Assembly (NCBI GenBank): GCA_017543335.1
Contig: JAFYGE010000058.1
Coordinates: 1 to 42,369, forward strand
From: Ruminococcus sp.
GTDB taxonomy: Bacteria > Bacillota > Clostridia > Oscillospirales > Ruminococcaceae
Length of the DNA stretch: 42,369 nucleotides
Direction of reading: 5' to 3'
How positions within the stretch are numbered: the first letter of the stretch is position 1; each line of letters begins with the position of its first letter. This document shows positions 101 to 41,236 of the stretch, piece by piece. The notes under the pieces are model-generated. The model ran no database searches. It was not told where the DNA came from and worked only from the letters and a program-made list of their open reading frames with translations. A program made the position numbers and the translations under genes.

Positions 101-106
101 TTTAAT

Positions 107-135
107 ATTATATCACATCTTTTTGAATTTGTCAA
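107..135 (-). promoter_or_regulatory. Sigma-A promoter, tandem copy 1 (nearest the left edge)
   Basis: Minus strand TTGACA at 130-135, a 17-base spacer, and TATAAT at 107-112 with an extended -10 (TGA before TATAAT). A-rich tracts resembling an UP element lie upstream. The stretch after the -10 contains AAAGCTG, as in the other three copies. Confidence 0.85.
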
Positions 136-205
136 GTACTTTTTTCAAGTTTTTTCAAATTCTTTTTTATGTGACCGCCGCTCCTTTTTGCTGAGCAGCT
201 TTTCT

Positions 206-234
206 ATTATATCACATTTTCTTTTGTTTGTCAA
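206..234 (-). promoter_or_regulatory. Sigma-A promoter, tandem copy 2
   Basis: Minus strand TTGACA at 229-234, 17-base spacer, TATAAT at 206-211 with extended -10 TGA. Followed by AAAGCTG as in the other copies. Confidence 0.85.
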
Positions 235-300
235 GTGCTTTTTTAACTTTTTTCAAACAATTTTTTCTGTGATACCCGCTCCTCTCAGAGCAGCTTTAAC

Positions 301-329
301 ATTATATCACTTATCTCAGGTTTTGTCAA
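301..329 (-). promoter_or_regulatory. Sigma-A promoter, tandem copy 3
   Basis: Minus strand TTGACA at 324-329, 17-base spacer, TATAAT at 301-306 with extended -10 TGA. Followed by AAAGCTG. Confidence 0.85.
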
Positions 330-411
330 GTACTTTTTTCCAAATTCTTTTTACTTTTCCCAAAGTCTCATCTGGTTCTCTTTACTCGACCTCTCCGTCG
401 ACAGCTTTTAT

Positions 412-25808: not shown

Positions 25809-25843
25809 TGAATATTATTCAGGCAATTAAATATCTATAAACT

Positions 25844-26205
25844 AAACCGGCGAAGCCGGGCAATAACGGGATTCCAAAGGGTTCCCAACCCTTTGGCGGA
25901 GAGGTGTACGAGGGGAGGCAGAGCCTCCCCTAAAAAGTAGTAAAAACAGCGTAGCGAGTTTTTACGGACCGTCTGCATTGCTTCCCTCGGCTTGACCGAC
26001 AAAAAAAGGCGAACCTGTAATATGGTTCGCCTTTAATTATTATGCCAGTCAAGCTGGGGCAAGTGCTGCGAGCCGTCCGCCCAGCGTAGCTTTGCTCGCT
26101 GGACTGCTTCTCAGGAAGGGCTCTGCCCTTCCTCGCACACCTTCCCGCTCAAGGGTTGAAAACCCTTGAGAATCCCGTTATTGCCCGGCTTCGCCGGTTT
26201 TTTTA
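25844..26205. repeat. Palindromic modular intergenic element 1
   Basis: A 360-bp non-coding element with a perfect 31-bp terminal inverted repeat (25844-25874 and 26170-26200). Its two arms are divergent inverted copies of each other around a central hairpin at about 26006-26034 (GGCGAACC/GGTTCGCC). Each arm has ordered hairpins: a terminal CCGGC-TTC-GCCGG stem, an AAGGGTT/AACCCTT stem, a GAGGC/GCCTC stem and an AGCG stem. Both outer ends read outward as terminators; the right one has a long T run (26198-26204) that would stop the ABC operon. The left arm is nearly identical, inverted, to 30520-30716. I see no ORF with a ribosome site inside. Confidence 0.9.
26185..26205 (+). terminator. Outward terminator at the right end of element 1
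   Basis: CCGGC-TTC-GCCGG stem-loop (26185-26197) followed by TTTTTTT. It serves rightward transcripts from the ABC exporter operon. Confidence 0.75.
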
Positions 26206-26228
26206 TTATTTTATTATTACCGCAAATT

Positions 26229-26270
26229 GGTGCAGGGTGGTTTCACCCTGCTGCCGACTTCGTCGGTTTT
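26229..26270 (+). repeat. Truncated remnant of the modular intergenic element
   Basis: GGTGCAGGGTGGTTTCACCC at 26229-26248, then a CCGAC-TTC-GTCGG hairpin and a T run. The same pair of hairpins, in the same order, closes element 2 (inverted, about 30281-30316). The terminal stem has a compensatory G-C to A-T change relative to element 1. It can act as a second terminator. Confidence 0.7.
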
Positions 26271-26345
26271 TGTTCCATTATTGTCAATATTACCGATTAT
26301 AATGCACCTGTTTTGTGCATATTTGCCTATCTTTTTGAAAAAATA

Positions 26346-26374
26346 TAGACAAATAAATAAAAATCGGTTATAAT
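26346..26374 (+). promoter_or_regulatory. Promoter of the rsmD-coaD operon
   Basis: TAGACA at 26346-26351, 17-base spacer, TATAAT at 26369-26374. Confidence 0.75.
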
Positions 26375-26426
26375 TATTTTTATATACCGGAAGCTTTATA
26401 TAGCTTCATACAGGAGTACATTTTAA

Positions 26427-26981
26427 ATGAGAGTAATTACAGGCATTGCAAGAGGACGCAGACTCGTTGCTCCGGAAGGACTTGACGTGCGTCCAACTAC
26501 AGATAAAGTTAAAGAAGGCATCTTTTCTGCCATCCAGTTCCAGATACAGGACGCTTATGTCCTCGACCTCTTTGCCGGCAGCGGTCAGATGGGTATCGAA
26601 GCCCTCAGCCGTGGTGCTAAAAGAGCCGTTTTCGTCGACAATTCCCAGCGTTCTATAAAATGCGTGAACGAGAATCTCCGCAATACTAAACTCGAACGTC
26701 AGGCAGAAGTTATAAACCGTGACAGCTATGATTTTATCAAGCTCACACGACTTGCATTCGATATAATAATCCTTGACCCACCTTACCGCCACGACCATAT
26801 CGCTACACTGCTCCCTATCGCAGCTAAAAAGGTCAGCGAGGGAGGATGCATAATATGCGAATACGAGGCGGAAGCTCAGGAGCCAACTGCTCCGGAAGGT
26901 CTTACCCTCAGAAAAACTTACCGCTACGGAAAAATAAACGTCACCATTTTCGACAGACCCGAAAGTGAGGCTGAGGAATAA
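26427..26981 (+). CDS. rsmD: 16S rRNA (guanine966-N2)-methyltransferase RsmD
   Basis: This 184-residue S-adenosylmethionine enzyme methylates G966 of 16S rRNA in the assembled small subunit. It shows the RsmD opening MRVITGIARGRRL, then RPTTDKVKEGIFS, the SAM-binding DLFAGSGQMGIEALSRGA (about 47-64) and the catalytic ILDPPY typical of N2-guanine methyltransferases. Length is typical. The start has GGAG about 12 bases upstream. Its stop overlaps the coaD start by one base; rsmD-coaD is a common conserved pair in Firmicutes. Confidence 0.95.
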   Translation: MRVITGIARGRRLVAPEGLDVRPTTDKVKEGIFSAIQFQIQDAYVLDLFAGSGQMGIEALSRGAKRAVFVDNSQRSIKCVNENLRNTKLERQAEVINRDSYDFIKLTRLAFDIIILDPPYRHDHIATLLPIAAKKVSEGGCIICEYEAEAQEPTAPEGLTLRKTYRYGKINVTIFDRPESEAEE

Positions 26982-27472
26982 TGAGAAGGATCGCTGTCTG
27001 CCCGGGAAGTTTCGATCCCGTGACCCTCGGGCATCTGGATATAATCACCAGAGCTTCTAAGCTCTTCGATAAAGTTATAGTTCTGATTTCACGAAATGCC
27101 GGCAAAAGTCAGCCGAGTTTCACCGCTACCGAGCGTATGCTCATGATCGAGACTGTTACCCGTGACCTCGATAACGTCGTGATCGATATACTCGACGGTC
27201 TTCTTGCAGACTACGTCCGCACTGTCGGTGCGATCGCCATTGTAAAGGGACTTCGTGCGGTTAGTGACTTTGAATATGAGTTCCAGATGGCTCTTGCTAA
27301 TAAGAAACTTTATGCCGGTGCGGAAACTGTATTCCTGACTACCGCCGCTGAGAATATGTACCTCAGTTCAAGCGTGGTCAAGCAGATAGCATATTTTGGC
27401 GGAGATATAAGCCATTTTGTCCCCGAAGCGATACTTGATGATATAAAACAAAGATTAGTTAAAGAGAGGTAA
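26981..27472 (+). CDS. coaD: Phosphopantetheine adenylyltransferase CoaD
   Basis: The 163-residue enzyme makes dephospho-CoA from 4'-phosphopantetheine and ATP, the penultimate step of coenzyme A synthesis. It has the nucleotidyltransferase motif GSFDPVTLGHLDII near the start (the HxGH equivalent is TLGH), then NAGKSQPSFTATERMLMI, KGLRAVSDFEYEFQMALANK, and the C-terminal YLSSSVVKQIAYFGGDISHFVP. All match bacterial CoaD, and the length is normal. It is translationally coupled to rsmD. Confidence 0.97.
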   Translation: MRRIAVCPGSFDPVTLGHLDIITRASKLFDKVIVLISRNAGKSQPSFTATERMLMIETVTRDLDNVVIDILDGLLADYVRTVGAIAIVKGLRAVSDFEYEFQMALANKKLYAGAETVFLTTAAENMYLSSSVVKQIAYFGGDISHFVPEAILDDIKQRLVKER

Positions 27473-27478
27473 AATGCT

Positions 27479-28000
27479 ATGAGTATTGATGAGATCTTAG
27501 AAGAAATGGACGAGCTTCTTGATAAAGCGTCCTCTATGCCATTTGTTGCACATAAAAAGGTTATCGACGGAGAGCGTATGCGTGAACTTATCAACGACGT
27601 AAGACTCAATATGCCTCACGAGCTCAAAGAAGCTAAAAAGATCGAGTTCGACTGCCAGCGTATCCTCAATGAGGCTAAGCTCAACGCTGAGGGTATAATC
27701 CGCAAAGCTGAAGAAAGAGCTGCTCAGATAGTTTCCCGTGAAGCTATCGTTACAGAGGCTAAGAAAAAGGCTGTGGATATGCTCACAAAGGCTCAGGCTG
27801 CCGCAAAGAACCTCCAGCAGAACGCTACTGCTTCTGTTACAAAGATGCTCAACGATACAGAGAATTACTACGCTCGCAATCTCCAGAGCATAAAGGCTGT
27901 AAAGAGTAAGATAACTGCTCAGACAAGCGGTTCAACTCCTGCAAGCCGTGCTATGATGAGCAATAACAACCTTATGAATAATAAAAACAATATCGGTTGA
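27479..28000 (+). CDS. Coiled-coil protein resembling ATP synthase subunit b or DivIVA, function unknown
   Basis: The 173-residue protein is Ala/Lys/Glu-rich and mostly helical, with a long coiled coil from about residue 50 to 140 (LKEAKKIEFDCQRILNEAKL, then AEERAAQIVSREAIVTEAKK). It has no membrane helix. The tail is Asn/Met-rich and low complexity. It resembles the cytoplasmic part of F-type ATP synthase b or the coiled coil of DivIVA, likely through composition rather than descent. It lies six bases after coaD, and similar small proteins follow coaD in related clostridia. Function is unknown. Confidence 0.75.
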   Translation: MSIDEILEEMDELLDKASSMPFVAHKKVIDGERMRELINDVRLNMPHELKEAKKIEFDCQRILNEAKLNAEGIIRKAEERAAQIVSREAIVTEAKKKAVDMLTKAQAAAKNLQQNATASVTKMLNDTENYYARNLQSIKAVKSKITAQTSGSTPASRAMMSNNNLMNNKNNIG

Positions 28001-28060
28001 TAACAGCTGATAAAGAAACAGCCCGAAAGCATATGAGCGATGCTGATATAGAAGTTTTAT

Positions 28061-28099
28061 GCCATAGTATTTCTGATATGTGGTCAGAAGTACTATGGC
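28061..28099. terminator. Near-perfect 16-bp inverted repeat after the coiled-coil gene
   Basis: 16-base arms at 28061-28076 and 28084-28099 pair with one mismatch around a 7-base loop. The following GTTTCTATT is only weakly T-rich. It ends a few bases before the -35 of the next promoter. It may be a terminator of the rsmD operon or a protein-binding palindrome for the acetyltransferase gene. Confidence 0.5.
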
Positions 28100-28106
28100 G
28101 TTTCTA

Positions 28107-28135
28107 TTGACAACGCAGCGATGTTATGCTATAAT
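28107..28135 (+). promoter_or_regulatory. Promoter of the acetyltransferase gene
   Basis: TTGACA at 28107-28112, 17-base spacer, TATAAT at 28130-28135 with extended -10 TGC. This is a full consensus promoter. Confidence 0.85.
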
Positions 28136-28175
28136 TGTTGCTAACATAAATCGGAATTTATGGAGAGTCACCGTT

Positions 28176-28601
28176 ATGATTAGAGAATTTCAAAGGGATG
28201 ATATAAATAAAGTTGCAGATATATGGTTGGATACAAATATAAAGGCACATAATTTTATCCCCGCCGAATACTGGAAAAGCAATTTCAAATCAGTAAAAGA
28301 CGCGTTGTTACTAGCAGAGGTTTATGTGTATGAGTATGATACAGAAATACAGGGTTTTATAGGGCTAAATGATGAATATGTTGAGGGCATTTTTGTTTCT
28401 GGTGAAATGCAATCGCAGGGTATAGGTAAAAAACTGCTGAATTATGTAAAGGATAAAAGGAATAAGTTGCACTTGAACGTATACCAAAAGAACGCACGGG
28501 CAATATCTTTTTATAAGAGAGAAGGATTTGAGATTCAGCATAGTGGCTTAGATGAGGCTACCGGAGAAAAAGATTATGTAATGACATGGCAACACAAATA
28601 G
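28176..28601 (+). CDS. GNAT-family N-acetyltransferase (YjaB-like)
   Basis: The 141-residue protein has the GNAT order: N-terminal MIREFQRDDINKVADIW, a beta-strand core EIQGFIGLND, the acetyl-CoA motif FVSGEMQSQGIGKKLLNYVK (Q/RxxGxG/A), and C-terminal LNVYQKNARAISFYKREGFE. This pattern is typical of YjaB/YiaC-type enzymes acting on small molecules or protein N-termini; the substrate is unknown. The start is ATG 28176 with GGAGAG upstream; the longer in-frame reading from 28080 runs through the promoter. It has its own consensus promoter and terminator, and its AT-rich codons differ from the genes to its left, so lateral acquisition is possible. Confidence 0.9.
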   Translation: MIREFQRDDINKVADIWLDTNIKAHNFIPAEYWKSNFKSVKDALLLAEVYVYEYDTEIQGFIGLNDEYVEGIFVSGEMQSQGIGKKLLNYVKDKRNKLHLNVYQKNARAISFYKREGFEIQHSGLDEATGEKDYVMTWQHK

Positions 28602-28638
28602 AAATTCTGATTTATCTTAGCAACATAAATAAACACAA

Positions 28639-28670
28639 TGCCCCGAAGCGTATTGAAACGCTTCGGGGCA
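28639..28670. terminator. Bidirectional terminator between convergent genes
   Basis: 13-bp perfect stem (28639-28651 with 28658-28670) and a 6-base loop. The leftward reading has the better T-rich tail. It serves the acetyltransferase gene and the leftward membrane protein gene. Confidence 0.8.
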
Positions 28671-28714
28671 AAACTTCTATATTGGTATCCGCATTAAGCT
28701 TTCGGGCTTTTTTG

Positions 28715-29023
28715 TCAGAACTTAGAATCAAGCGATACACACATAAAGAGATATACCGCTGCGATGATCAGTGAACATACTGCACTTGCTGCAAATCCGG
28801 ATGTAACCATTGATACTGTATAAATAACAAGGATTATTGATGCAAGTTTCTTACAAAGGGCGTAATCGCCTTTGAATCCGGAATATGCCATTACCAGTGA
28901 AAATAACGTACTAGCTATAGTGAAGAAAGCTCCTATACTAAAGCCATCTTTCAGTGAGCTAAGTATCGAAAGAACTGCAAATACAAGGATAAGAATGTTC
29001 CATACTTTGAATGCTGTTTTCAT
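28715..29023 (-). CDS. Small multi-pass membrane protein, unknown function
   Basis: The 102-residue protein is almost entirely hydrophobic, with about four membrane helices (VWNILILVFAVLSIL; FFTIASTLFSLVMAYSG; LASIILVIYTVSMVTSG; CSLIIAAVYLFMCV) joined by short loops. It has no motif I recognise. The AGGAG ribosome site is about eight bases before ATG 29023. It lies 38 bases after prfB on the same strand with no promoter evident, so it may be carried on the prfB transcript. Confidence 0.75.
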   Translation of the reverse strand: MKTAFKVWNILILVFAVLSILSSLKDGFSIGAFFTIASTLFSLVMAYSGFKGDYALCKKLASIILVIYTVSMVTSGFAASAVCSLIIAAVYLFMCVSLDSKF

Positions 29024-29060
29024 TTTTTTCTCCTATATCATAAATTTATTTTATCAGAGA

Positions 29061-30179
29061 TCACTTCTGGAGAGTTCCGTGTGAAAGTGATTTCAGATAA
29101 GCGTTGATAAAGCCATCGATGTCGCCGTCCATAACAGCCTGAATGTTACCGTTTTCAAAGCCGGTGCGATGGTCTTTAGCGAGAGTGTAAGGCATAAATA
29201 CATATGACCTGATCTGCGAACCCCATGCGATCTGGTTCTGTACGCCCTTTATGTCCTCTATCTTTTCGAGGTGCTCTCTCTCCTTTATCTCAATGAGTTT
29301 TGAGCGGAGCATCTTCATAGCGTAGTCCTTGTTCTGGTACTGGCTTCGCTGAGTCTGACAAGAAACAACGATTCCTGTAGGCTTATGGATAAGACGTACA
29401 GCAGAGCTGGTCTTGTTTACCTTCTGACCGCCTGCACCGCTTGAACGGTAAACTTCCATTTCAATATCCTCAGGACGGATATCAACTTCGATAGAATCAT
29501 CGATTTCCGGCATAACTTCAAGAGCCGCAAAGGAAGTATGTCTTCTTCCGGAAGCGTCAAACGGAGATATACGCACAAGGCGGTGAACTCCGGATTCTGA
29601 TTTCATATAGCCGTAAGCGTTATCGCCCTCGATGAGTATTGAAGCGGACTTCATACCTGCGTCGTCGCCGTCGAGGTAATCAAGGAGAGTGACCTTGTAC
29701 TTATGACGCTCAGCCCAGTGATTGTACATTCTATAGAGCATTTCTGCCCAGTCCTGAGCCTCTGTACCGCCTGCACCGGCATGGAAAGTGAGGATAGCGT
29801 TAGAGCTGTCGTACTCACCGGTGAGGAGTGTAGAGAGCTTTTCGTCTTCAAGCTTTCTCTTGAAGCTCTCTGCTTCCTGAGTTATTTCGTCAACGGAGCT
29901 GTCGTCATCCTCCTCGATAGAGAGTTCTATGAGGGTGATGAGGTCTTCGAGGGACTCGTTGAGTTTATTGTATTTTTCGATTTTCTTTTCGAGAGTTTTC
30001 TGCTCTTTGAGGACTTTCTGAGAATTTTCGAGGTCGTCCCAGAAGCCTTCTTTAGCAGTTTCTTCTGCGAGTTCAGCAACTCTTTCTTTAGCAGCTTTTA
30101 TATTCAGAACGTCGGCAAGCTCGGTCATTTCCTTGCGATAGCCGGTCATTTCGACTCTGAAGTCGTCTAAAATGATCAT
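29061..30179 (-). CDS. prfB: Peptide chain release factor 2 (no programmed frameshift)
   Basis: The 372-residue factor reads UAA/UGA stop codons and releases the peptide. The UGA-specific SPF tripeptide is at about 205-207 (VRISPFDAS) and the catalytic GGQ at about 250-252 (SSGAGGQKVNK). Length is normal. Most bacteria interrupt prfB near codon 25 with a UGA and a +1 shift that gives autoregulation; here the frame is continuous through ELADVLNIKAAKERV with no such signal. The start is ATG 30179 with AAAGGAT upstream; the reading frame extends to 30311 but that part crosses the promoter. Confidence 0.96.
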   Translation of the reverse strand: MIILDDFRVEMTGYRKEMTELADVLNIKAAKERVAELAEETAKEGFWDDLENSQKVLKEQKTLEKKIEKYNKLNESLEDLITLIELSIEEDDDSSVDEITQEAESFKRKLEDEKLSTLLTGEYDSSNAILTFHAGAGGTEAQDWAEMLYRMYNHWAERHKYKVTLLDYLDGDDAGMKSASILIEGDNAYGYMKSESGVHRLVRISPFDASGRRHTSFAALEVMPEIDDSIEVDIRPEDIEMEVYRSSGAGGQKVNKTSSAVRLIHKPTGIVVSCQTQRSQYQNKDYAMKMLRSKLIEIKEREHLEKIEDIKGVQNQIAWGSQIRSYVFMPYTLAKDHRTGFENGNIQAVMDGDIDGFINAYLKSLSHGTLQK

Positions 30180-30213
30180 ATGTCCATATCCTTTCATAGC
30201 GTTATACGAATAT

Positions 30214-30242
30214 ATTATAGCATATTTTTTCAGATACTGCAA
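30214..30242 (-). promoter_or_regulatory. Probable promoter of prfB
   Basis: Minus strand TTGCAG at 30237-30242, 17-base spacer, TATAAT at 30214-30219 with extended -10 TGC. Confidence 0.65.
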
Positions 30243-30274
30243 TAGAATGAGAAAAATTAAAATAAAAAACAAAT

Positions 30275-30720
30275 AAAAAACCGGCGAAGCCGGACAGCAG
30301 GGTGAACCCACCCTGCACCCATTTCACGCTTCGCTCGTAAACTCGCTTACTCTCTGCGAGACTTTTACTCTGCTTTCGCATACATCAGTAATGCGTAAAG
30401 GTAATTACCGGATACGGACTTATCTTCGTATGCGAAAGCAGACTTCCCTACTCGTACAGAGTAACGAGCAAAGCGAGTGAGAGCGTGAGACGGGTGCAGC
30501 GTCACGCTGCCGGCTTGAATGGCATAATAATTAAAGGCGAACCATATTACAGGTTCGCCTTTTTTGTCGGTCAAGCCGAGGCAAGCAATGCGGACGGTTC
30601 GTAAAAACTCGCTACGCTGTTTTTACTGCTCTTTAGGGGAGGCTCTGCCTCCCCTCGTACACCTCTCCGCCAAAGGGTTGGGAACCCTTTGGAATCCCGT
30701 TATGCCCGCCTTCGGCGTTT
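30275..30720. repeat. Modular intergenic element 2 (composite of modules A and B)
   Basis: A 445-bp non-coding composite between two leftward genes. Module A (about 30520-30716) is an inverted, nearly identical copy of the left arm of element 1; by eye I count about six substitutions and two one-base gaps. The other arm is module B (30296-30510), which matches 37877-38091 in inverse orientation, ungapped, with eight mismatches in 215 bases. The outer ends are CCGGC-TTC-GCCGG (30281-30293) with an outward T run and CGCC-TTC-GGCG (about 30706-30716) with an outward T run. Inside B are a 15-bp inverted repeat (30369-30383 and 30428-30442) and the palindrome GGTAATTACC (30400-30409). Confidence 0.9.
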
Positions 30721-30735
30721 TTATTTTTCTTTTAT

Positions 30736-31824
30736 TTATTTTTCCGGACTTTCGTTAACTGTCTGAGTTATATCAGGAGCTTCACCCTGCTGCTCCGGAG
30801 CCGGAACTATCATCTTAGCATTCGGGTCATATTTCAGAATAAGCTCCTTGATCTTATCATCAAGTGTGAGATTATAAGTAAGTTTAAGAGCCTGAAGAGC
30901 ATTAGGTATATCCTTACGAGCAAGGAACACAGAAGCAAGCTGTCCGGCTACGTTTACAACGTCATTATCAGGACCAAATGTAATATCGTACTTTTCCATA
31001 GTTTCCATTATCTTTTCCTTACCCGGATAAGATACAGGCTTGCCTGTAACGTCAGCGATATGCTGAAGCTCACGAGGAATAGCAGGATTAGGTGACATCA
31101 TAGCACTTGCACTGTAGAAAGCGACAGCATCATCAAATTCATTGAAAGCTGTGAGGATATATCCCACATTTGCGTAGCATCTTGCGATAGCTATAGGAGA
31201 TGAAGCTACCTTCATAGTCTCTCTTGTAATTTCCAGCAAGCGTGACTTGTTGTGGAGTATCTTATAGACTTCAGCAAGTTCAAATTTAGGTGAAACGTCG
31301 ATCGGGTTGTACTCCTGAGCTTTTTCGAGTATCGGAATAGCGTCCAGAGGAGAGCCTGTCTCAGTGAGTATATAGGCGTAAACTGTAATAAATTTACAGA
31401 AATCGAAAGGAGTACGGTTCAGAGCTTTCTCCGGCTTATAGAGGAAGTGGTACATATTGTCCTCGAAAGGGTTGCGGAGCGAAACGAACTTTGATTTTTC
31501 AGTCTCCTTGAATTCCAGAATGATCTTTTTATAGAGCTTTTCAGCGAGAGGTTTAGCTTCTACAGCCTTGCTCTCGTTGAGAAGAGCGTCGATCTCGTCA
31601 TAAATTTCGTCGAGTCTTTTGCCGTCGATATAGGTAAGACACTTAATTTCCTCACGCTGCTCCTCCGGCATATTCTCCATGAGAAGAGCACCGGCAGCAT
31701 TCACACCTTCCTGATCGCCGTTTTTTATGAACTGCTCTACCTCTTTTTTCAGCATAGCCTCATTAGCAGCCTTATCGTCGGTCATTGCAGCTTTCAGTCT
31801 GTTATATATTTCATTATATGCCAT
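30736..31824 (-). CDS. TPR-like helical repeat protein, function unknown
   Basis: The 362-residue cytoplasmic protein is mostly helical. Its middle (about 140-270) has tetratricopeptide-like pairs: SPLDAIPILEKAQEYNPIDV, then SPKFELAEVYKILHN, and CYANVGYILTAFNEFDDAVA. A second possible pair is near 310-340 (IPNALQALKLTYNL). The C-terminus is a Pro/Glu/Gln-rich tail. No signal peptide is seen. It follows the 925-residue protein with a 77-base gap holding a hairpin that lacks a T run, so the two may be co-transcribed and act together as a scaffold. I do not recognise the family. Confidence 0.75.
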   Translation of the reverse strand: MAYNEIYNRLKAAMTDDKAANEAMLKKEVEQFIKNGDQEGVNAAGALLMENMPEEQREEIKCLTYIDGKRLDEIYDEIDALLNESKAVEAKPLAEKLYKKIILEFKETEKSKFVSLRNPFEDNMYHFLYKPEKALNRTPFDFCKFITVYAYILTETGSPLDAIPILEKAQEYNPIDVSPKFELAEVYKILHNKSRLLEITRETMKVASSPIAIARCYANVGYILTAFNEFDDAVAFYSASAMMSPNPAIPRELQHIADVTGKPVSYPGKEKIMETMEKYDITFGPDNDVVNVAGQLASVFLARKDIPNALQALKLTYNLTLDDKIKELILKYDPNAKMIVPAPEQQGEAPDITQTVNESPEK

Positions 31825-31850
31825 GTAATTTTTCCTCGTTTCTCTAAGTT

Positions 31851-31884
31851 AATGCACTGACACCCCGGAGGCTGCCAGTGCATT
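31851..31884 (-). other. Hairpin between the repeat-protein and TPR-like genes
   Basis: 9-bp stem (31851-31859 with 31876-31884) with a GC-rich loop. No T run follows on the minus strand, so it is more likely a processing or attenuating structure than a terminator. Confidence 0.5.
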
Positions 31885-31901
31885 TATTGATTTTCTGTTT
31901 A

Positions 31902-34679
31902 TTAAAGGCCTCTCTTAGCCATATCCTTTCTGAATTTGGCATCGATCTTATCCTGCTTCTTCTTAGCTTTAAGTTCAGCTTTAGTCATGAAGCGGATGTC
32001 CTTTTCCTCCGGAGCAGAAGGCATACTGCTTCCGCCTGACGGACGGACAGGAGAGCTTGTTACAGGACCTTTATACTCTTTGAATCCTGAAACTGTTGTC
32101 TGAGCATTTTTCTGCTGTTCTCTGAGCTTCTTCTCCTTTGCGGAGTTATCGCCCATAGTAGAGAGAACGTCCTCAACAGATGTAAGGATAGGACTGTTAG
32201 CGTGAAGTCCCTGAGTTTCGATAAGGTTCTTATTAGCGTAGTCCTTAGAGCTTGCGATAGCATTGATAAAGGACTGTGATGTAGACTTTGAATGTGGATT
32301 TACTGCTATCTTTGAGATATTTGCAGTAGGAGTTGTATATGGAGCATTCGGGTCCTGAGGACCGAATTTCGGCTTCTTTGGAACAGGTGAATTTACAGGA
32401 GCTGCTTGTGGAGCTGCTGCCTGAGGTGCAGGAGCAGGGATTTTCTGTCCCGGAAGCGGAGCAAATATCGGCTGACCATTCTGGTCGAGGCCTGTCATCT
32501 GCATCTGAACGTAATTGTAAACAGGCTGACCGTTCTGGTCGTATCCTGCGAACTGCGGAACACTTATCACCTGTGGCTTTGGCATCTGAGGAGCAACATT
32601 CTGCTGCGGAGCCTGAGCTGGTCTTGCCTGTGCAGGAGCTGCCTGCTGCGGTGCCGGCTGAGCCTGAACAGGACGTGCCTGAGGCTGTACCGGAGCTGCC
32701 TGCTGCGGAACCGGCTGAGCCTGAACAGGACGTACCTGAGGCTGTACCGGAGCTGCCTGCTGTGGTACAGGCTGAGCCTGAGCCGGTCTTGCCTGTGCCT
32801 GTACAGCAGCTGATGCCGGAGCAAAAGTTTGCTGTCTTATCTCGTCTGCGAAAACTGGTGTACTATATCTATACTTATTCATATCATCTTCAACGCCCTC
32901 AACGGTAGATTCATTCAAAACTGTAGTTTCTTCGTAATCGTCATCCATAGACTCATCTGTGCCTATCAGAGAAGCTTCAGGAGATGAAATATCTTCAAGT
33001 ACCGGAGCTGCCGGTGCTTCATTTACAGGAGCAATGTCCTCCAAGACTGGTGCTGCCTGATTCTCATATGCAGGAGCAATTTCCTCTAAGACTGGTGCTG
33101 CCTGATTTTCGTATGCAGGAGCAATATCCTCCAAGACTGGTGCTGCCTGATTTTCGTATGCAGGAGCAATATCCTCCAAGACTGGTGCTGCCTGATTCTC
33201 ATATGCAGGAGCAATGTCCTCCAAGACCGGTGCTGCCTGATTTTCGTATGCAGGAGCAATGTCCTCTAAAACTGGTGGTACCGGTGCTATATCTTCTAAG
33301 ACTGGAGCCGCCTGAACTCCCTGCTGTCCGAAGACCTGCGAAGCAACGTTTTCCCACTCGTTTTCATTCTGTGCATTTGGCTGTTCATAAACCGGCTGAC
33401 CGTACTGTGGCTGTGCCGGCTGTTCATAAACCGGCTGACCATACTGCGGCTGTACCGGCTGTTCGTAAGCTGGCTGACCATACTGCGGCTGTACCGGCTG
33501 TTCGTAAGCTGGCTGACCATACTGCGGCTGTACCGGCTGTTCGTAAGCTGGCTGACCGTACTGTGGCTGTACCGGCTGTTCGTAAGCCGGCTGACCGTAC
33601 TGCGGCTGTGCTGCCTGTTCATTGATATAAGGATTGTTAGCGGCATAGTATGGATTCTGTGCCGGAGCAAGCTCGTTTTCTTCAACGTCGATAACGCTTG
33701 TATCGTTAGCGTACTGACTTACAGGCTCTGTCTCATAGCCGCTGTATGCAGGCTCGGCAGGCTGATTGTTGAGAGAGAACATTTTGAGAAGATCTTCCTC
33801 TGTTCTTATATCCTGGACCGGTGGCTGCTCGTAGGTATTATTTGCGTAATTCTGCTCGTATGGAGCTGCCTGCTGCTGATTTCCGCCGAGTGAAATGTCA
33901 GCCATTTCCTCTGGTTCATCGTAAGCAGGCTGAGGAGTTTCAAAAATGTTCTGCTGTTCTGGTGAAGGAATAGCGAACTGAGCGAGGAAATCATCGCTCT
34001 GCGGAGCATTCTGCTTTACAGGTGCTTCTTCCTCAACAGTTTCTTCCGGCTTCTGCACAGCGAACTGAGCAAGGAAATCGTCCTGAGCTTCCGGCTCCGG
34101 TTCCGGTTCTTCCTTTGGAACATTTATAGCAAAAGCGGCAAGGCTGTCATCCATAGGAACGCCTGTTCCGGGAATAGTTCTCTGTGCAGGCACAGGTTCC
34201 GGGACAGGTGCCGGCTGAGAGAGCACTTCTGTTTCGGCAGTTTCCTGATTAGCAGCTTCAGCGGCTTTGCGTGCTTCCTCAGCCTCTCTTGCAGCTCTTT
34301 CAGCTTCTGCTCTTCTTCTCTCTTCAGCTTCCCTTGCAGCTTCTTCCTCACGTCTTTTTTCTTCAGGCGACTTCGTTATCTTAGCCTGAGTATTTCCAAG
34401 CGGAACGATACCCTCATCTTCAAGACCTCTTTTAGCTCTTGCTTTTTCCTCCTTGAGGATACGTGCCATTTCTTTTTTATCCGCCTTGATTATCATTTTA
34501 GCGAGCTTTTCTTTACATTTTTCGCAGGTGATCTCCTTCAAGTCGGTCATAGTGCTTCCACGGCGGTATTTAGTAACGTTTTCCGGTTTAAGGAGGTTTA
34601 TGCCGCAGCCGGTCTTTCTATCGTCACTTGTACCATGGACTTCATCGTTGAACGAAGATGTTACGAGTGTAATATCCAT
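31902..34679 (-). CDS. Large Pro/Gln/Ala repeat protein with an N-terminal Cys motif
   Basis: The 925-residue protein has a globular start (MDITLVTSSFNDEVHG) with Cys in KTGCGINLL and a CEKC pair at about 50-53, which could bind zinc. A charged, Ala/Glu/Arg-rich helix follows (about 95-150). Then come long low-complexity stretches with three tandem repeat families: a 13-residue unit (QPAYEQPVQPQYG), a 15-residue unit (APVLEDIAPAYENQA) and a 19-residue unit (RPxQAQPxPQQAAPV). The C-terminus is Lys-rich (TKAELKAKKKQDK). There is no signal peptide or membrane helix. It may be a flexible cytoplasmic scaffold. The start is ATG 34679 with GGAGAG at about six bases; the in-frame ATG at 34691 overlaps that site. 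It is followed by the TPR-like gene. Confidence 0.8.
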   Translation of the reverse strand: MDITLVTSSFNDEVHGTSDDRKTGCGINLLKPENVTKYRRGSTMTDLKEITCEKCKEKLAKMIIKADKKEMARILKEEKARAKRGLEDEGIVPLGNTQAKITKSPEEKRREEEAAREAEERRRAEAERAAREAEEARKAAEAANQETAETEVLSQPAPVPEPVPAQRTIPGTGVPMDDSLAAFAINVPKEEPEPEPEAQDDFLAQFAVQKPEETVEEEAPVKQNAPQSDDFLAQFAIPSPEQQNIFETPQPAYDEPEEMADISLGGNQQQAAPYEQNYANNTYEQPPVQDIRTEEDLLKMFSLNNQPAEPAYSGYETEPVSQYANDTSVIDVEENELAPAQNPYYAANNPYINEQAAQPQYGQPAYEQPVQPQYGQPAYEQPVQPQYGQPAYEQPVQPQYGQPAYEQPVQPQYGQPVYEQPAQPQYGQPVYEQPNAQNENEWENVASQVFGQQGVQAAPVLEDIAPVPPVLEDIAPAYENQAAPVLEDIAPAYENQAAPVLEDIAPAYENQAAPVLEDIAPAYENQAAPVLEEIAPAYENQAAPVLEDIAPVNEAPAAPVLEDISSPEASLIGTDESMDDDYEETTVLNESTVEGVEDDMNKYRYSTPVFADEIRQQTFAPASAAVQAQARPAQAQPVPQQAAPVQPQVRPVQAQPVPQQAAPVQPQARPVQAQPAPQQAAPAQARPAQAPQQNVAPQMPKPQVISVPQFAGYDQNGQPVYNYVQMQMTGLDQNGQPIFAPLPGQKIPAPAPQAAAPQAAPVNSPVPKKPKFGPQDPNAPYTTPTANISKIAVNPHSKSTSQSFINAIASSKDYANKNLIETQGLHANSPILTSVEDVLSTMGDNSAKEKKLREQQKNAQTTVSGFKEYKGPVTSSPVRPSGGSSMPSAPEEKDIRFMTKAELKAKKKQDKIDAKFRKDMAKRGL
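32611..32800 (-). repeat. 57-base coding tandem repeats (Gln/Ala/Pro unit)
   Basis: About three in-frame copies of a 19-residue unit containing RPVQAQPVPQQAAP inside the 925-residue protein. Confidence 0.7.
32993..33315 (-). repeat. 45-base coding tandem repeats (VLEDIAPAYENQAAP unit)
   Basis: About seven in-frame copies of a 15-residue unit inside the 925-residue protein. The central copies are nearly identical at the DNA level, so copy number may vary. Confidence 0.85.
33381..33620 (-). repeat. 39-base coding tandem repeats (QPAYEQPVQPQYG unit)
   Basis: About six in-frame copies of a 13-residue Tyr/Gln/Pro unit inside the 925-residue protein. Confidence 0.85.
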
Positions 34680-34836
34680 AATGCTCTCCATCTCTCTCTC
34701 CGTATATCGGTGAGTGCCGCTTTACGGCAGCGGCAGCCGATTTCCCAAAGACCCGCACACAGAAATGAGAAGTCTGAAAGTGAGTATAAATTAAGGTCGC
34801 AGACTAAAAATGTACGGATCGTATCAATACACTTAT

Positions 34837-34865
34837 ATTATACCTTATGCGGAAGTAAAAATCAA
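34837..34865 (-). promoter_or_regulatory. Possible promoter of the repeat-protein gene
   Basis: Minus strand TTGATT at 34860-34865, 17-base spacer, TATAAT at 34837-34842. It gives a leader of about 150 bases. Confidence 0.55.
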
Positions 34866-35042
34866 CACTTTATTTGAAATTTCCATGAAAAATTATACGA
34901 TTTTCAATTTTTTTGGAGAAAATAACAAATCGTTATCTGGTTTTTTGTCCATATTTTTCACTGTTGACCCGGTATAAAATTATGCACTTTTTAGCTAAAA
35001 ACACAAATCGTGACTATATATTGCTATATTATGGGCAATCGG

Positions 35043-35071
35043 TTGACAAAAATATGTGTAAATGTTATACT
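35043..35071 (+). promoter_or_regulatory. Promoter of the dockerin-CotH gene
   Basis: TTGACA at 35043-35048, 17-base spacer, TATACT at 35066-35071 with extended -10 TGT. The rest of the divergent intergenic region (34700-35145) is AT-rich with no gene visible. Confidence 0.85.
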
Positions 35072-35160
35072 ATGACTGATTATCGGTGAAAAAGACAGAT
35101 ACAGAAGGGGTCGCCGGTACATAAGATCACTGCAATTGGTCATAAATGGAGGTAATGATC

Positions 35161-37848
35161 ATGAGAAAATTTTACAGATGCACTGCGGCCGGCATCATGA
35201 GCCTTGCACTCGCTCTGAACGCCGCAGGCTACACACCAGCACCAAAGGCAGATGCCGCAGGCAACGGCATCACTATTAACGAAGTATGCCCGAAAAATAC
35301 CGTTACTCCGGCTCCGGACGGCGGTCTTTATGACTGGGTAGAGCTCTACAACAGTTCGTCTTCGTCAATGGACATCAGCGGCTGGGGTCTGACCGATAAA
35401 GCTTCTAAGCCTTATCGCTACACATTCCCGTCAGGCACAGTTATAGGTGCAGGTCAGAGATTAACTGTTTTCTGCGATGCTGATGCCGGAGCTGCTAATG
35501 CTTCTATAGTGCCTTTCGGACTTTCAACTTCCGGAGAGACCCTCACCCTCACAGATGCTTCCGGTACAGCAGTCAGCACCGTAACTTTTGAAGCTATGGC
35601 TTCCGATACTTCTTACGGACAATACCCTGACGGAAGCGGAGATTATTTCGTTTTAAGCTGCACTCCTAATAGTGCAAATACCGCTCCTGAAGGTTCAAAC
35701 GCTGTTAAGACTCCTGAATTTTCAGCTGAAAGCGGATTCTACGATAACGAATTCCAGCTAAATATCTCAGCTCCTTCAGGTACTACTGTTTATTATACTA
35801 TCGACGGAAGTGACCCGACTTCCGCTTCCGAACGCTATACAAGCGGTATCCGTATATACGACCGCACAAATGAACCTAATGTTTACAGTGCAAACACTGA
35901 TATAAGTGCAAGCAAGGTCGCTGCACCTACAAAGCCTGTCGATAAAGCTATGGTAGTTCGTGCAGTAGCTGTTGACAGTCAGGGCAGAACAAGTGATATA
36001 GTCACAAAAACATATTTTGTCGGAACTACTAACGGCTCTTACTATAAAGATATGAAGGTGGTTTCTCTTGTTACTGACCCGGATAACCTCTTTGATTACG
36101 AAAAAGGTATCTACGTAAAAGGTAAGATTTTCGACGAAAAGAATCAGACTCAGCAGAATCCGGGCGGTCCCGGAGGTCAGGGCGGTCCCGGAGGCTGGGG
36201 CGGCATCGGCGGCTGGGGCGACTTCGGCGGCTTCGGCTGGGGAATGGTAAATCCTTGGGAAATGGAAGCAAACTATACTCAGCACGGCAAGGAATGGGAA
36301 AGACCTGCTTCATTCGAGCTCTTTGAAAACGGCAAGAGTATTCTTTCTCAGGGCGTAGGAATCCGCATAAAAGGTGCAGCTTCAAGGTCTTCCGCTCAGA
36401 AGAGTTTCAATGTATACGCTCGTGCAGATTACGGTAAGGCTGAGCTTGAATACGATTTCTTCGACGGCACTTCCACTAAGAAGAAAAACGGCAAGACCGT
36501 TAAGAAATACGAGGGCATCACTATCAGAAACGGCGGTAACGATTGCAGCTACGCTTTCTTCCGTGACTCAATAAACCAGAACCTCGTTGCTGACAGAAAT
36601 ATGGCTGTTGAAGCTACAAACCAGTGCATGGTATTCATCGACGGCGAATTCTGGGGTATCTATCAGATAATCGAACGTGTAAGCGATGACTACATAAGCA
36701 GTCACTACGATATAAAGAAGAGCGATGTCGCTATCATCAAAAACTTTGAACTTGAAGAAGGTTCGGATCAGGACCTCAATGACTGGAACAACCTCGTAAA
36801 GAGCTGCTATGAGACTGATATGACCAATGAGCAGAATTATCGTCAGCTCTGCGAAAAGCTCGATATACAGAGCTATATCGACTACTTTGCAGCTCAGATA
36901 TACTGGAACAATACCGACTGGCCGCAGAATAACTTCGCTTCATGGAGATCAAATGCTATCGATGAATCCAACCCTTACGCTGACGGCAAATGGAGAATGT
37001 TCCTGTTCGATACAGAGTACTCAACAGGTCTTTACGGCAACGGCACTACTGCTGATGCAAACACCTTCCAGAGAGTACTTTCCTCTCAGGCTAATGAGGG
37101 AAAAATGTTCGCTGCTCTTATGAAAAATAACGAGTTCAAAGCTCAGTTCGAGCGTACTATGATGGACTTGTATAACTACAATTTCACTAAGGAAAAAACT
37201 GAAAAAGTAATAAAATACTACAGCGAGAATTTCCGTCAGCAGATACTCGATACATTCGAGAGATTCTACTCTGATTCATATTCAGGTCAGAAAGGCGTTC
37301 AGCAGCTCGAAAAGGAGTACAGGGCTGTTACCGACTTCTATCAGTCCCGTGGAAGCTATATACAGCGTCAGATGAAGAACGCTCTTTCTCTCACAGGCGA
37401 ACTCAAAACTGTCAATATTTCTCAGGATACCAATAAGGGTAAGGTGCGTGTGAACACTATCACTCTTGGTAAAGATTATTCAACTTGGAGCGGTCAGTAT
37501 TACAGCGACTACGATATAACCGTTTCTGCATTGCCTGAAAACGGCTATACATTTGACCACTGGGAAGTAAGCGGAGCTGATCTCTCCGGTCAGCAGCTAA
37601 AGAGCAAGGAACTGACTGTAAAGCTCAATTCCGATGTTACTCTCACTCCTGTATATACGGCTGAAAGCAGTACCGATAAGGGTGATTATAACAACGACGG
37701 CAGCATCAATATCGCTGACGCTGTTGTGCTCCAGCAGTATCTTTTAGGCAAGAAAGTCCAGATAAATTTTGCCGACATGAATAACGACGGCTGCTTGGAT
37801 TCATATGATTTGGTACTGCTCAGAAGAGCTTTGATAAAGAATAAATAA
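35161..37848 (+). CDS. Secreted CotH-kinase-like protein with lamin-tail, chitobiase-like and dockerin domains
   Basis: The 895-residue protein has a signal peptide (about 1-33). Next is a lamin-tail domain (about 37-170; ITINEVCPKN, YDWVELYN, DISGWGLTD), then a CHB/HEX C-terminal-type domain (about 185-290; GTTVYYTIDGSDPTS). A CotH kinase-like core follows (about 298-680), with KGIYVKGK, RIKGAASRSSAQKSF, GIYQIIERV and GKWRMFLFDTEYS, whose Asp would bind metal. A Gly/Trp-rich insert at about 332-362 lies within the core. An InlB-like repeat (about 760-830) and a C-terminal type I dockerin (about 839-895; DYNNDGSINIAD and DMNNDGCLDSYD) complete it. Dockerin-CotH proteins occur in R. flavefaciens cellulosomes; CotH proteins of Bacillus spores phosphorylate coat proteins. 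The start is ATG 35161, eight bases after GGAGG (35148-35152); an in-frame ATG at 35146 overlaps that site. Confidence 0.92.
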   Translation: MRKFYRCTAAGIMSLALALNAAGYTPAPKADAAGNGITINEVCPKNTVTPAPDGGLYDWVELYNSSSSSMDISGWGLTDKASKPYRYTFPSGTVIGAGQRLTVFCDADAGAANASIVPFGLSTSGETLTLTDASGTAVSTVTFEAMASDTSYGQYPDGSGDYFVLSCTPNSANTAPEGSNAVKTPEFSAESGFYDNEFQLNISAPSGTTVYYTIDGSDPTSASERYTSGIRIYDRTNEPNVYSANTDISASKVAAPTKPVDKAMVVRAVAVDSQGRTSDIVTKTYFVGTTNGSYYKDMKVVSLVTDPDNLFDYEKGIYVKGKIFDEKNQTQQNPGGPGGQGGPGGWGGIGGWGDFGGFGWGMVNPWEMEANYTQHGKEWERPASFELFENGKSILSQGVGIRIKGAASRSSAQKSFNVYARADYGKAELEYDFFDGTSTKKKNGKTVKKYEGITIRNGGNDCSYAFFRDSINQNLVADRNMAVEATNQCMVFIDGEFWGIYQIIERVSDDYISSHYDIKKSDVAIIKNFELEEGSDQDLNDWNNLVKSCYETDMTNEQNYRQLCEKLDIQSYIDYFAAQIYWNNTDWPQNNFASWRSNAIDESNPYADGKWRMFLFDTEYSTGLYGNGTTADANTFQRVLSSQANEGKMFAALMKNNEFKAQFERTMMDLYNYNFTKEKTEKVIKYYSENFRQQILDTFERFYSDSYSGQKGVQQLEKEYRAVTDFYQSRGSYIQRQMKNALSLTGELKTVNISQDTNKGKVRVNTITLGKDYSTWSGQYYSDYDITVSALPENGYTFDHWEVSGADLSGQQLKSKELTVKLNSDVTLTPVYTAESSTDKGDYNNDGSINIADAVVLQQYLLGKKVQINFADMNNDGCLDSYDLVLLRRALIKNK

Positions 37849-37865
37849 AAAATAATAAAAACAGT

Positions 37866-38097
37866 CGAAGGCGGGTGCAGCGTGACGCTGCACCCGTCTC
37901 ACGTTCTCACTTGCTTTGCTCGTTACTCTGTACGATCAGGGAAGTCTGCTTTCGCATACAAAGATAAGTACGTATCCAGTAATTACCTTTACGCATTACT
38001 GATGTATGCGAAAGCAGAGTAAAAGTCTCGCAGAGAGTAAGCGAGTTTACGAGCGAAGCGTGAAATGGGTGCAGGGTGGTTTCACCCTGCTATTTTT
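37866..38097. repeat. Modular intergenic element 3 (module B alone)
   Basis: Module B (37877-38091) matches 30296-30510 inverted, without gaps. The left end is a strong hairpin (about 37873-37895, CGGGTGCAGCGTGACGCTGC and onward). The right end is GCAGGGTG-GTTT-CACCCTGC (38071-38090) followed by a T run, a terminator for the CotH gene. The 15-bp inverted repeat is intact, but the GGTAATTACC palindrome is broken by one base. Module A and the CCGGC ends are absent. 38098-38247 has no gene; a weak TTGCAT-17-TATTAT (38173-38201) may be the promoter of the next gene. Confidence 0.88.
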
Positions 38098-40404: not shown

Positions 40405-41211
40405 ATGCAATATAAAAAATTCGCAATTATAGCAGCTGTCTCACTTATGCTGACAGGCTGCGGAAAAGATGACCCTGCTGATGATGTCAGCAAGTCAAGT
40501 GACGTTGTTGTTACTGCCGCTGAAGAAGTGACAGAAGCTTCCTCTGTTCCGGAGGAAACTGCTGAAACCGTAACAACTGAGGCTCTGACTACGGAAGAGG
40601 TCACTACTGAGATGTTAACGACTGAGCCGGTCACTGAGGCTGAAACTGCTGCGTCTGAAAGCAATAGCAATGTTATGACCGATAATTCCGGTGACGAAAA
40701 TGAAGGCTCATCCCTGTGTTACCTCGACGGTCTTGAACTTGGTATGACTAAGGAGGAAGTCTTTAGCATACTCGGTGATGACTATGATAACATGGTTGAA
40801 AAATCCACCAGACCTTCGGTGGAATATGAATATAAAACCAAAACAGATACCGATTTCGGCACCGACCTTCCCGGTTACATCTTCGCTGAATTCGATACAG
40901 AAAATAAACTCATCTGCTTCGGATGTCACCTTGGTCTTACAGGTGATCTTAACGAGCCTGTTTATCCATACACTGAGGACGATCTTGAAAGAGCTTATAA
41001 CAGGCTTTTGCAGGAAATAGAGCTTCGTTTCGGTGCCCCTTCCAGCTCCGAGAACCAGTATTCCGACAGCGGCGTGAAAGCTCAGAATATTTGGGATACC
41101 GATAAATGTCAGGTATGGGCGATATACGGTACAAATCTGTGGGCAGCATATGCTCCGGATAAATACGAAAAAGGTGTTAATGAGGTAGTAGTTTCATACT
41201 CTATCAAATAA
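40405..41211 (+). CDS. Lipoprotein with a Thr/Glu-rich linker and a SmpA-like segment
   Basis: The 268-residue protein has a lipobox LTGC, so mature Cys19 should carry a lipid. Residues about 22-110 are a Thr/Glu/Val-rich, low-complexity linker. The C-terminal domain (about 105-268) begins YLDGLELGMTKEEVFSILGD, which resembles the start of SmpA/OmlA-type domains, and contains three Cys (SLCYLD, LICFGCH, DKCQVW). Signal-peptide type and linker point to an extracellular surface lipoprotein. The GGAGGG ribosome site is clear. It is 20 bases after the previous gene. Function is unknown. Confidence 0.8.
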   Translation: MQYKKFAIIAAVSLMLTGCGKDDPADDVSKSSDVVVTAAEEVTEASSVPEETAETVTTEALTTEEVTTEMLTTEPVTEAETAASESNSNVMTDNSGDENEGSSLCYLDGLELGMTKEEVFSILGDDYDNMVEKSTRPSVEYEYKTKTDTDFGTDLPGYIFAEFDTENKLICFGCHLGLTGDLNEPVYPYTEDDLERAYNRLLQEIELRFGAPSSSENQYSDSGVKAQNIWDTDKCQVWAIYGTNLWAAYAPDKYEKGVNEVVVSYSIK

Positions 41212-41236
41212 AATAAATATATAGGAGAATAGAATA

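What the first reader, a model, noticed from the sequence alone, without database searches (positions are those of the whole stretch)
25844..38097. A family of modular, hairpin-rich intergenic elements with exchangeable arms
Three non-coding elements (25844-26205, 30275-30720, 37866-38097) share blocks in a mosaic. Element 1 and element 2 share one arm (module A), the central GGCGAACC/GGTTCGCC hairpin and the bases just beyond it, and one CCGGCTTCGCCGG end. After that junction, element 1 continues with a divergent copy of A, while element 2 switches to module B. Element 3 is B alone. Copies are in opposite orientations, and all lie between genes. I recognise no transposase, no CRISPR and no known RNA class. 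They could be non-autonomous mobile elements, portable terminators or structured RNAs.
Basis: seen in the sequence. Interest (0 to 1): 0.85.

Follow-up and report, generated by a model that had tools for sequence, protein, structure and literature searches.

The report
Reshuffling hairpin repeats behind Ruminococcus genes
The window holds three members of a large family of repeated DNA elements built from strings of hairpins, for which no earlier description was found; they sit just behind genes in Ruminococcus, are rearranged in place between close relatives, and carry matching tracts that suggest three-stranded DNA.

Summary
In detail: three intergenic elements share modules A and B as described. 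They belong to a repeat family: 53 clusters in the fetched parts of this Ruminococcus genome, model matches in 61 of 125 genus genomes (strong in 23), no Rfam match. The A unit (about 155 nt) is a string of five hairpins, strongly supported by compensatory change (97% of cells paired; repeated in 44 further units). New here: beside hairpins 3 and 4 lies a tract that follows the hairpin's own purine arm in parallel (mirror) orientation across types (permutation 0 of 10,000, repeated in further units). Copying cannot make mirror repeats, so this points to selection for an intramolecular triplex. In a sister genome all 18 sites that could be placed are occupied, but seven differ in arms, and in 5 of 7 two-unit sites the inner hairpin block has changed sides. 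A TIR-bearing copy in the sister meets an empty site in this window (about 41,206). Elements lie a median of 19 nt behind stop codons. Most likely: a MITE-derived, BIME/BOX-like mosaic repeat whose non-B DNA drives local template switching and recombination. New variant of a known kind; the triplex reading is the boldest part.

The parts
25812..25834 (+). relic of the terminal inverted repeat (TIR) of the single-unit form, left of element 1
   Evidence: pattern match, 2 mismatches
25846..26001 (-). element 1, left A unit (P type, hairpins 1-5; hairpin 5 at 25847-25859)
   Evidence: (178.9 bits)
26005..26034 (.). central GGCGAACC/GGTTCGCC hairpin of element 1
26043..26198 (+). element 1, right A unit (Q type); hairpin 5 at 26185-26197 with T run
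   Evidence: (168.4 bits)
26125..26147 (.). perfect 8-nt pyrimidine-rich mirror repeat GCCCTTCC-7-CCTTCCCG: 3' arm of hairpin 3 and its candidate third strand
   Evidence: one of 2 such repeats in the window
26224..26252 (-). 29-nt end of a B module
30281..30293 (.). left end hairpin of element 2 (terminator-like on the - strand)
30296..30510 (+). element 2, module B (two facing half units)
30533..30562 (.). central hairpin of element 2
30565..30719 (+). element 2, A unit (P type)
   Evidence: 170.6 bits
37877..38091 (-). element 3, module B alone
41206..41216 (.). empty site: the sister genome G001 (C52, about 10830-11115) carries a TIR-bearing single A unit here

Best explanation
These are non-coding, MITE-derived interspersed mosaic repeats. 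The basic unit is a string of five hairpins separated by short conserved linkers. It occurs singly (often with TIRs, inferred to be the form that inserts), or as two facing units (types P and Q) around a short centre, or with module B in place of one arm. Hairpins 3 and 4 each carry a following tract that is the parallel complement of part or all of their purine arm, so each could fold as hairpin plus third strand (pyrimidine motif on one strand, purine motif on the other). Inferred mechanism: after insertion behind a gene, the element extrudes non-B structures when the DNA is single-stranded or supercoiled; stalled or foldback synthesis and strand exchange at the repeated linkers then flip inner blocks and swap hairpin blocks between arms and between copies, while hairpin and triplex folds are kept by selection. 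Shown: copy number, fold with compensatory change, mirror covariation, turnover at occupied sites, side-swapped inner blocks, one empty site, position behind stop codons. Inferred: triplex formation, the replication or recombination mechanism, the transposition enzyme, and any benefit to the host.
For: Copies: A 61, B 28 matches in own genome; 53 clusters; 61 of 125 genus genomes at E<=1e-5, 23 of them at 1e-20 or better. Fold: 97.0% of cells paired, 401 cells changed on both sides against 132 shuffled; 44 further units 95.5%, 234 against 77. Mirror, hairpin 3: 14 types, 84 of 98 against 62.8, 0 of 10,000; further units, 14 types, 83 of 98 against 64.8, 0 of 10,000; hairpin 4: 10 types, 39 of 60 against 30.7, 0 of 10,000. 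Turnover: 18 of 18 placed sites occupied in G001, 7 with different arms; hairpin-2 block on the other side at 5 of 7 two-unit sites; at G000 C23:44770 two tagged blocks occur once per fetched genome set, at this site, on opposite strands. Mobility: TIR 18 against 0, one empty site. Position: median 19 nt behind stops (n=49) against 97 nt before starts (n=51), P=1.2e-6.
Against: No transposase was tied to the TIRs. Eleven of 18 placed sites keep their arm architecture (7 two-unit, 2 single, 2 B). The commonest hairpin-3 type has imperfect third strands (GGGAGGC: CTCTCCG 11, CTCTCTG 1, CCTACCG 9); 26 of 117 units match at fewer than 6 of 7 positions, and one new type fits worse than nearly all other linkers. 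The antiparallel control is flat in the first set but weakly raised in the further units (187 of 10,000). Types share ancestry, so the permutation is not a phylogenetic test. Third strands rich in C need protonation (established knowledge); the E. coli triplex motif was not seen folded in vivo (PMC4666352, section 20 part 1 read). Blocks that differ could also come from copies that were not fetched.
Confidence: 0.6

Rival explanations
1. The elements are portable bidirectional terminators or mRNA 3'-end structures, kept for that job; the fold is an RNA fold.
For: Elements lie a median of 19 nt behind stops; hairpin 5 followed by a run of 4 or more T within 12 nt in 60 of 70 units against 6.5% of + strand window 12-mers; 44 of 50 sites lie behind at least one gene.
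Against: Single A units in tandem contexts face against the gene in 16 of 24 cases (two related genomes, so some sites are orthologous), though 13 of 30 located hairpin-1 ends also have a T run on that strand. Six of 50 sites are divergent; under-representation against 15 of 62 plain gaps is not significant (P=0.14). Does not explain mirror tracts or side-swapped blocks.
Confidence: 0.25
2. A structured RNA is transcribed from each unit and acts as such.
For: Strong, repeated compensatory change.
Against: On the modelled strand A.C mismatches outnumber G.T pairs (55 to 26, two to three loop-side columns left out), opposite to what an RNA on that strand would give; the other strand is not excluded. 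No Rfam match. Orientation to genes varies.
Confidence: 0.12
3. REP/BIME-type repeats spread by a Y1 (RAYT) transposase.
For: Facing palindromic units of two types, intergenic, mosaic, as described for BIMEs (PMC2817692, passages read).
Against: No Y1_Tnp in this genome (86% complete). Over the genus, Y1 occurs in 9 of 25 genomes rich in the repeat (9 or more R1 matches; one of the 9 is a weak hit in G001) and in 32 of the other 100 (my tally).
Confidence: 0.05
4. The mirror relation is a by-product: hairpin 3 and its linker travel as one block and resemble each other only by composition and descent.
For: Blocks are exchanged whole; tracts are pyrimidine-rich; types are related.
Against: Type-level permutation keeps composition and counts each type once, still 0 of 10,000 in two sets; 4 of 7 types new in the second set fit their own linker better than all 25 others, 1 ties its best rival, 2 do not (two of the four share a linker).
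Confidence: 0.2

Closest known systems
Intrastrand triplex motifs of bacteria (TM_ECO / PIT; PMC4666352)
   Same: Intergenic repeats with hairpin plus third strand; some in facing pairs of two types; many copies; linked there to local instability.
   Different: TM_ECO is one nearly uniform 37-nt motif, reported there from proteobacteria, with loops of 3-6 and 3 nt; here two such motifs sit in a five-hairpin unit, vary in sequence and covary. The published TM_ECO pattern has 0 matches in 434 loci.
BIME / REP elements (PMC2817692)
   Same: Intergenic, palindromic, facing units, mosaic.
   Different: Unit is about 155 nt with five hairpins; REPs are 20-40 bp (PMC3733652, search listing only). No Y1 transposase found in this genome.
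BOX, RUP and SPRITE of Streptococcus (PMC3049150)
   Same: Modular composite repeats in a Firmicute, MITE traits, insertion into one another, SPRITE enriched behind genes and terminator-like (passages read).
   Different: Sequence relation was not looked for; exchange here reaches single hairpins, in place.
Small inversions at hairpins in chloroplast DNA (PMC12371153)
   Same: A short segment at a hairpin flips in place (passages read).
   Different: Here several nested levels are affected within a repeat family.

Membership tests
MITE | terminal inverted repeats | tested here: met
   single-unit form only: 18 matches against 0 reversed control, flanks listed; element 1 keeps a relic on one side
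MITE | short, non-coding, multicopy | tested here: met
   (3 clusters overlap an ORF call by more than 60 nt)
MITE | empty sites in relatives | tested here: met
   one case; gain or loss not decided
MITE | target-site duplication | tested here: inconclusive
   A/T-rich ends allow several readings
MITE | parent transposase with the same ends | not tested
   580 nt around 12 of the 18 TIR matches were looked at without an ORF or family search; genome is 86% complete
REP/BIME with RAYT | Y1 transposase (PF01797) in genome | tested here: not met
   no association in the genus
REP/BIME with RAYT | facing palindromic units | tested here: met
TM_ECO / PIT triplex repeat | published sequence pattern | tested here: not met
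   0 of 434 loci
TM_ECO / PIT triplex repeat | hairpin plus third strand with triplex-compatible sequence | tested here: met
   sequence level only; 91 of 117 units at 6 or 7 of 7 positions
TM_ECO / PIT triplex repeat | triplex forms in vitro | not testable with these tools
   needs CD, NMR or footprinting
Rfam RNA family | match at gathering score | tested here: not met
   (0 of 4227 families); only sub-threshold matches
BOX element | boxA-boxB-boxC sequence modules | not tested
   comparison with PMC3049150 is by description only

The most novel reading that the evidence does not exclude
The A units are the first bacterial repeats in which a third DNA strand shows covariation: stem and third strand have changed together through a dozen or more sequence types across a genus, so selection has kept intramolecular triplexes, and these structures drive in-place inversion and hairpin exchange behind genes.
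Probability: 0.4. Interest if true: 0.87.

Novelty: new variant of a known kind. Interest (0 to 1): 0.72.

Why it matters
Whether intrastrand triplexes matter in bacterial chromosomes is open: the copies of the E. coli motif are too alike to show selection on the third strand. This family varies, so stems and third strands can be matched or mismatched, in a genus with the sequenced strain R. flavefaciens FD-1. It also offers a natural record of inversion and block exchange at candidate non-B DNA, and a warning that such sites can break metagenome assemblies and be mistaken for new RNAs.

Tried and rejected
Rfam: nothing at gathering score. Y1 transposase as driver: not supported. Antiparallel (Watson-Crick) pairing of the linker with hairpin 3: no signal in A1, weak in A3 (187 of 10,000 at type level), far below the parallel one. 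RNA strand preference by G.U pairs: against the modelled strand. Published TM_ECO pattern: absent from the loci held. Depletion at divergent genes: not significant. One search printed 0 of 28 T runs at the hairpin-1 end; that was my error (the slice cut hairpin 1 off), redone: 13 of 30 located, 31 singles. One search did not place 35 of 53 clusters in G001; I take this to be mostly because the matching stretch was not fetched, but did not check; they are not counted as empty. Stretches of G024, G031, G035, G040, G045, G296 and G306 fetched for empty sites were not examined for that. The source of exchanged blocks was not resolved. Papers: no report of this family was seen in searches (open-access full texts only). 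PMC4666352: abstract, sections 15, 16, 18 and part 1 of 20 read, passages of others; PMC2817692, PMC3049150, PMC12371153, PMC11109978, PMC8632094: passages only; PMC3733652: search listing.
Full report
WHAT IS THERE. The three elements and their shared modules are real. The window is contig 42 of a 2.45-Mb draft genome (G000, 95 contigs, 86% complete). Module A has 61 and module B 28 matches in G000. In the G000 stretches that I fetched, these merge to 53 clusters.

THE UNIT. Ninety-four near-complete A units were collected from G000 (47), G001 (28) and others (19). Eighteen carry a nested insert and two were dropped for length; of the other 74 one was a duplicate record, and 73 were aligned. 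Each is a string of five hairpins: hp1 TCGG-TCAAG-CCGA; hp2, an 8-bp stem of many sequences round a TTGCTTCGCT-like loop; hp3, a purine arm, a 3-nt loop, a pyrimidine arm; hp4 such as CCAAAGGG...CCCTTTGG; hp5 such as CCGGC-TTC-GCCGG, mostly followed by T. With this structure 97.0% of 2331 cells pair, 401 cells differ on both sides (132 in shuffles), 21 of 32 pairs have a change on both sides, and sliding the partner by one base drops pairing to 50-56%. A covariance model of this alignment has matches at E<=1e-5 in 61 of 125 genus genomes, at 1e-20 or better in 23 of them (at most 24 candidates scored per genome; the listed best matches are all full-length, the weaker ones were not listed). In 197 genomes drawn from the family, own included, 7 others have weak matches of 41.4 bits or less. 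Forty-four units not in the first alignment, from 12 other genomes (six of which had given other units to it), repeat the result: 95.5% paired, 234 against 77. They were chosen with the model, so they lean towards its fold.

THE MIRROR TRACTS. The linker after hp3 (spacer TCG[CT]ACA, then for example CCTTCCCG) reads as the parallel complement of the purine arm of the same hp3 (GGAAGGGC). It is therefore a mirror image of the hp3 pyrimidine arm. Over the last seven bases, exact fits are GAAGGGC with CTTCCCG (8 of 13 units), GGGGGAC with CCCCCTG (4 of 6), GAGAGGC with CTCTCCG (3 of 4), GGGGAAC with CCCCTTG (2 of 7, the other 5 one base off) and, only in the further units, GAGGGAC with CTCCCTG (3 of 5) and GGGAGAC with CCCTCTG (1 of 1). 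Counting each hp3 type once with its commonest linker, 84 of 98 positions agree against 62.8 on re-dealing linkers (0 of 10,000); in the further units 83 of 98 against 64.8 (0 of 10,000). The antiparallel comparison gives 35 against 36.8, and 47 against 39.5 (187 of 10,000). Over all units, 57 of 73 and 34 of 44 agree at 6 or 7 of 7 positions. hp4 shows the same with its linker: CCCT with TCCC, CTCTC with CTCTC, CCCTC with CTCCC; 10 types, 39 of 60 against 30.7, 0 of 10,000, while the direct-repeat control is flat (27 against 25.3) (A1 and A3 pooled, hp4 located by a simple hairpin search). In the window, the right unit of element 1 has the perfect repeat GCCCTTCC-7-CCTTCCCG at 26125-26147; the P units of elements 1 and 2 match at 6 of 7. 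Template copying, gene conversion and inversion all work through antiparallel strands and so cannot create a mirror relation; this is established knowledge, and it is why selection for a parallel third strand (T.A-T and C+.G-C on this strand, or A.A-T and G.G-C on the other) is my reading. Against it: the commonest type, GGGAGGC, has imperfect linkers (11 CTCTCCG, 1 CTCTCTG, 9 CCTACCG); one new type, GGAGGAC, fits worse than nearly all other linkers; and types are related by descent.

TURNOVER IN PLACE. G001 is colinear with G000 over long parts of the window and of two other contigs. Of 53 clusters 18 could be placed between both flanks in G001 (aligned flanks of 458-503 nt, 88.7-99.0% identical, 32 of 36 at 93% or more), and all 18 hold element sequence there, one of them only a remnant. 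Some G001 stretches had been fetched because they match A; on the two stretches mapped by synteny (C77, and C23 from 37500) 14 of 18 clusters were placed and 14 of 14 are occupied. Seven of the 18 have two facing A units in both genomes, two have one in both, two have B in both, and seven differ in arms. At element 1, G001 has B-centre-A where G000 has A-centre-A'; at element 3, G001 has an A unit with insert, a centre and a further hairpin string where G000 has B. Element 2 is a nineteenth case seen by eye, A'-centre-A in G001 at a contig end. In the seven two-unit pairs, hp5 matches better on the same side in six and is undecided in one, but the hp2 block matches across sides in five, hp1 in four of these five. 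At G000 C23:44770 hp2 crosses at 96 and 100% identity (linker 1 at 76 and 100%), and 24-nt and 40-nt strings that tag the two blocks occur once in the fetched G000 set and once in the G001 set, at this site, on opposite strands: an exchange of sides in place is likelier than an import. At C77:6766 the sequences match except for a nested insert, a few bases and the right-hand hp4, where both stem strands and the mirror linker changed together (CCAAAGGG..AATCCC to CCAGAGAG..ACTCTC); the new hp4 string occurs nowhere else in the fetched G000 and G001 sets.

MOBILITY. Single units often lie between imperfect TIRs. The pattern TTATTANTNCGGCAATNAAATAT with up to 3 mismatches has 18 matches in G000 and none when reversed. 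At G000 C49:15654-15724 the two TIRs meet with no unit between them. In G001 (C52) a TIR-bearing single unit stands between the genes that in this window are 25 bases apart (41211 and 41237); the sequence aligns on both sides. The direction, gain in G001 or loss in G000, is not known. No transposase was tied to the TIRs. Y1 transposases were not found in G000 and are not associated with the repeat in the genus.

POSITION. By simple ORF calling, 50 of 53 clusters have genes on both sides within the fetched stretch: 39 tandem, 5 convergent, 6 divergent; 3 clusters overlap an ORF call. Measured from the edge of the A or B match, the distance from a stop codon has a median of 19 nt (n=49; 31 at 30 nt or less) and to a start codon 97 nt (n=51; 8 at 30 nt or less), Mann-Whitney P=1.2e-6. 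hp5 is followed by a T run in 60 of the 70 G000 and G001 units where the script found hp5; it missed 5. So transcription from the gene before a two-unit element would meet a terminator-like end at its far side. This is compatible with a terminator role, with insertion into terminator regions, or with tolerance there; the data do not separate these.

HOW IT MOST LIKELY WORKS. Shown: family, fold, mirror covariation, in-place turnover, one empty site, position. Inferred: single TIR copies arrive behind genes through an unknown transposase; a second arm is added; hairpins and triplexes then stall synthesis, and foldback or strand exchange at the shared linkers flips inner blocks and swaps hairpins, as small inversions do at hairpins elsewhere (PMC12371153, passages read). 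Selection keeps stems and third strands matched. Whether the host gains is open.

KNOWN KINDS. Intrastrand triplex repeats are known in bacteria: a 37-nt motif, always intergenic in E. coli MG1655, sometimes in facing pairs of two types, with raised local variability (PMC4666352). That paper's main text holds no word beginning with covaria and does not name Ruminococcus. The present family shares the principle but not the sequence, and varies enough to test the third strand. It resembles BIMEs and BOX elements in being modular (PMC2817692, PMC3049150, passages), but fails the Y1 test for RAYT-driven REPs. I therefore file it as a new variant of a known kind.

Noticed in passing
L103:15289-15365, L104:11827-11901, L117:2128-2202 and others: A nested 67-78-nt hairpin module (GGTTACCCCTACC...GGACCCGATTAGGGT) is inserted at about one spot in hairpin 3 in 13 places of the fetched G000 set and 6 of G001; the 17 copies printed are nearly identical.
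   Followed up: partly
about L103:15385-15445, L111:8177-8231, L106:1855-1920: A second nested module of similar build (GGCTAACCGCCCC...GGGGCGTCACC) sits in the loop of hairpin 4.
   Followed up: no
L228 (G000:C49:15654-15724): A TIR pair with no hairpin unit between the ends, with a CGTCG that also borders the filled form.
   Followed up: partly
L083:1499-1584, L084:1424-1509, L088:1639-1686, L122:1700-1779; L157 about 684-1241: Another family of hairpin strings shares hairpin 4 and its mirror linker with the A unit; hairpin-4 matches of about 35 nt recur in many genomes of the genus.
   Followed up: no
L106:13003-13160 (G000:C23 about 50502-50659) against G001:C47: At least 17 kb is inverted in G001; one end lies in the middle of a two-unit element, and G001 contigs C47, C52 and C55 end in or beside such elements.
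   Followed up: partly
L103-L107: Element density is uneven: contigs 23 and 77 of G000 carry 20 of the 53 clusters.
   Followed up: no
window 32943-33651: 45-nt and 39-nt tandem repeats in the ORF 31902..34691.
   Followed up: no
window 97-361: Three copies of a 71-nt AT-rich repeat with starts 99 and 95 nt apart.
   Followed up: no
window 18446-21844 and 35146-37848: Two large secreted proteins with dockerin-like stretches (by eye, no family search), the second being the gene just before element 3.
   Followed up: no
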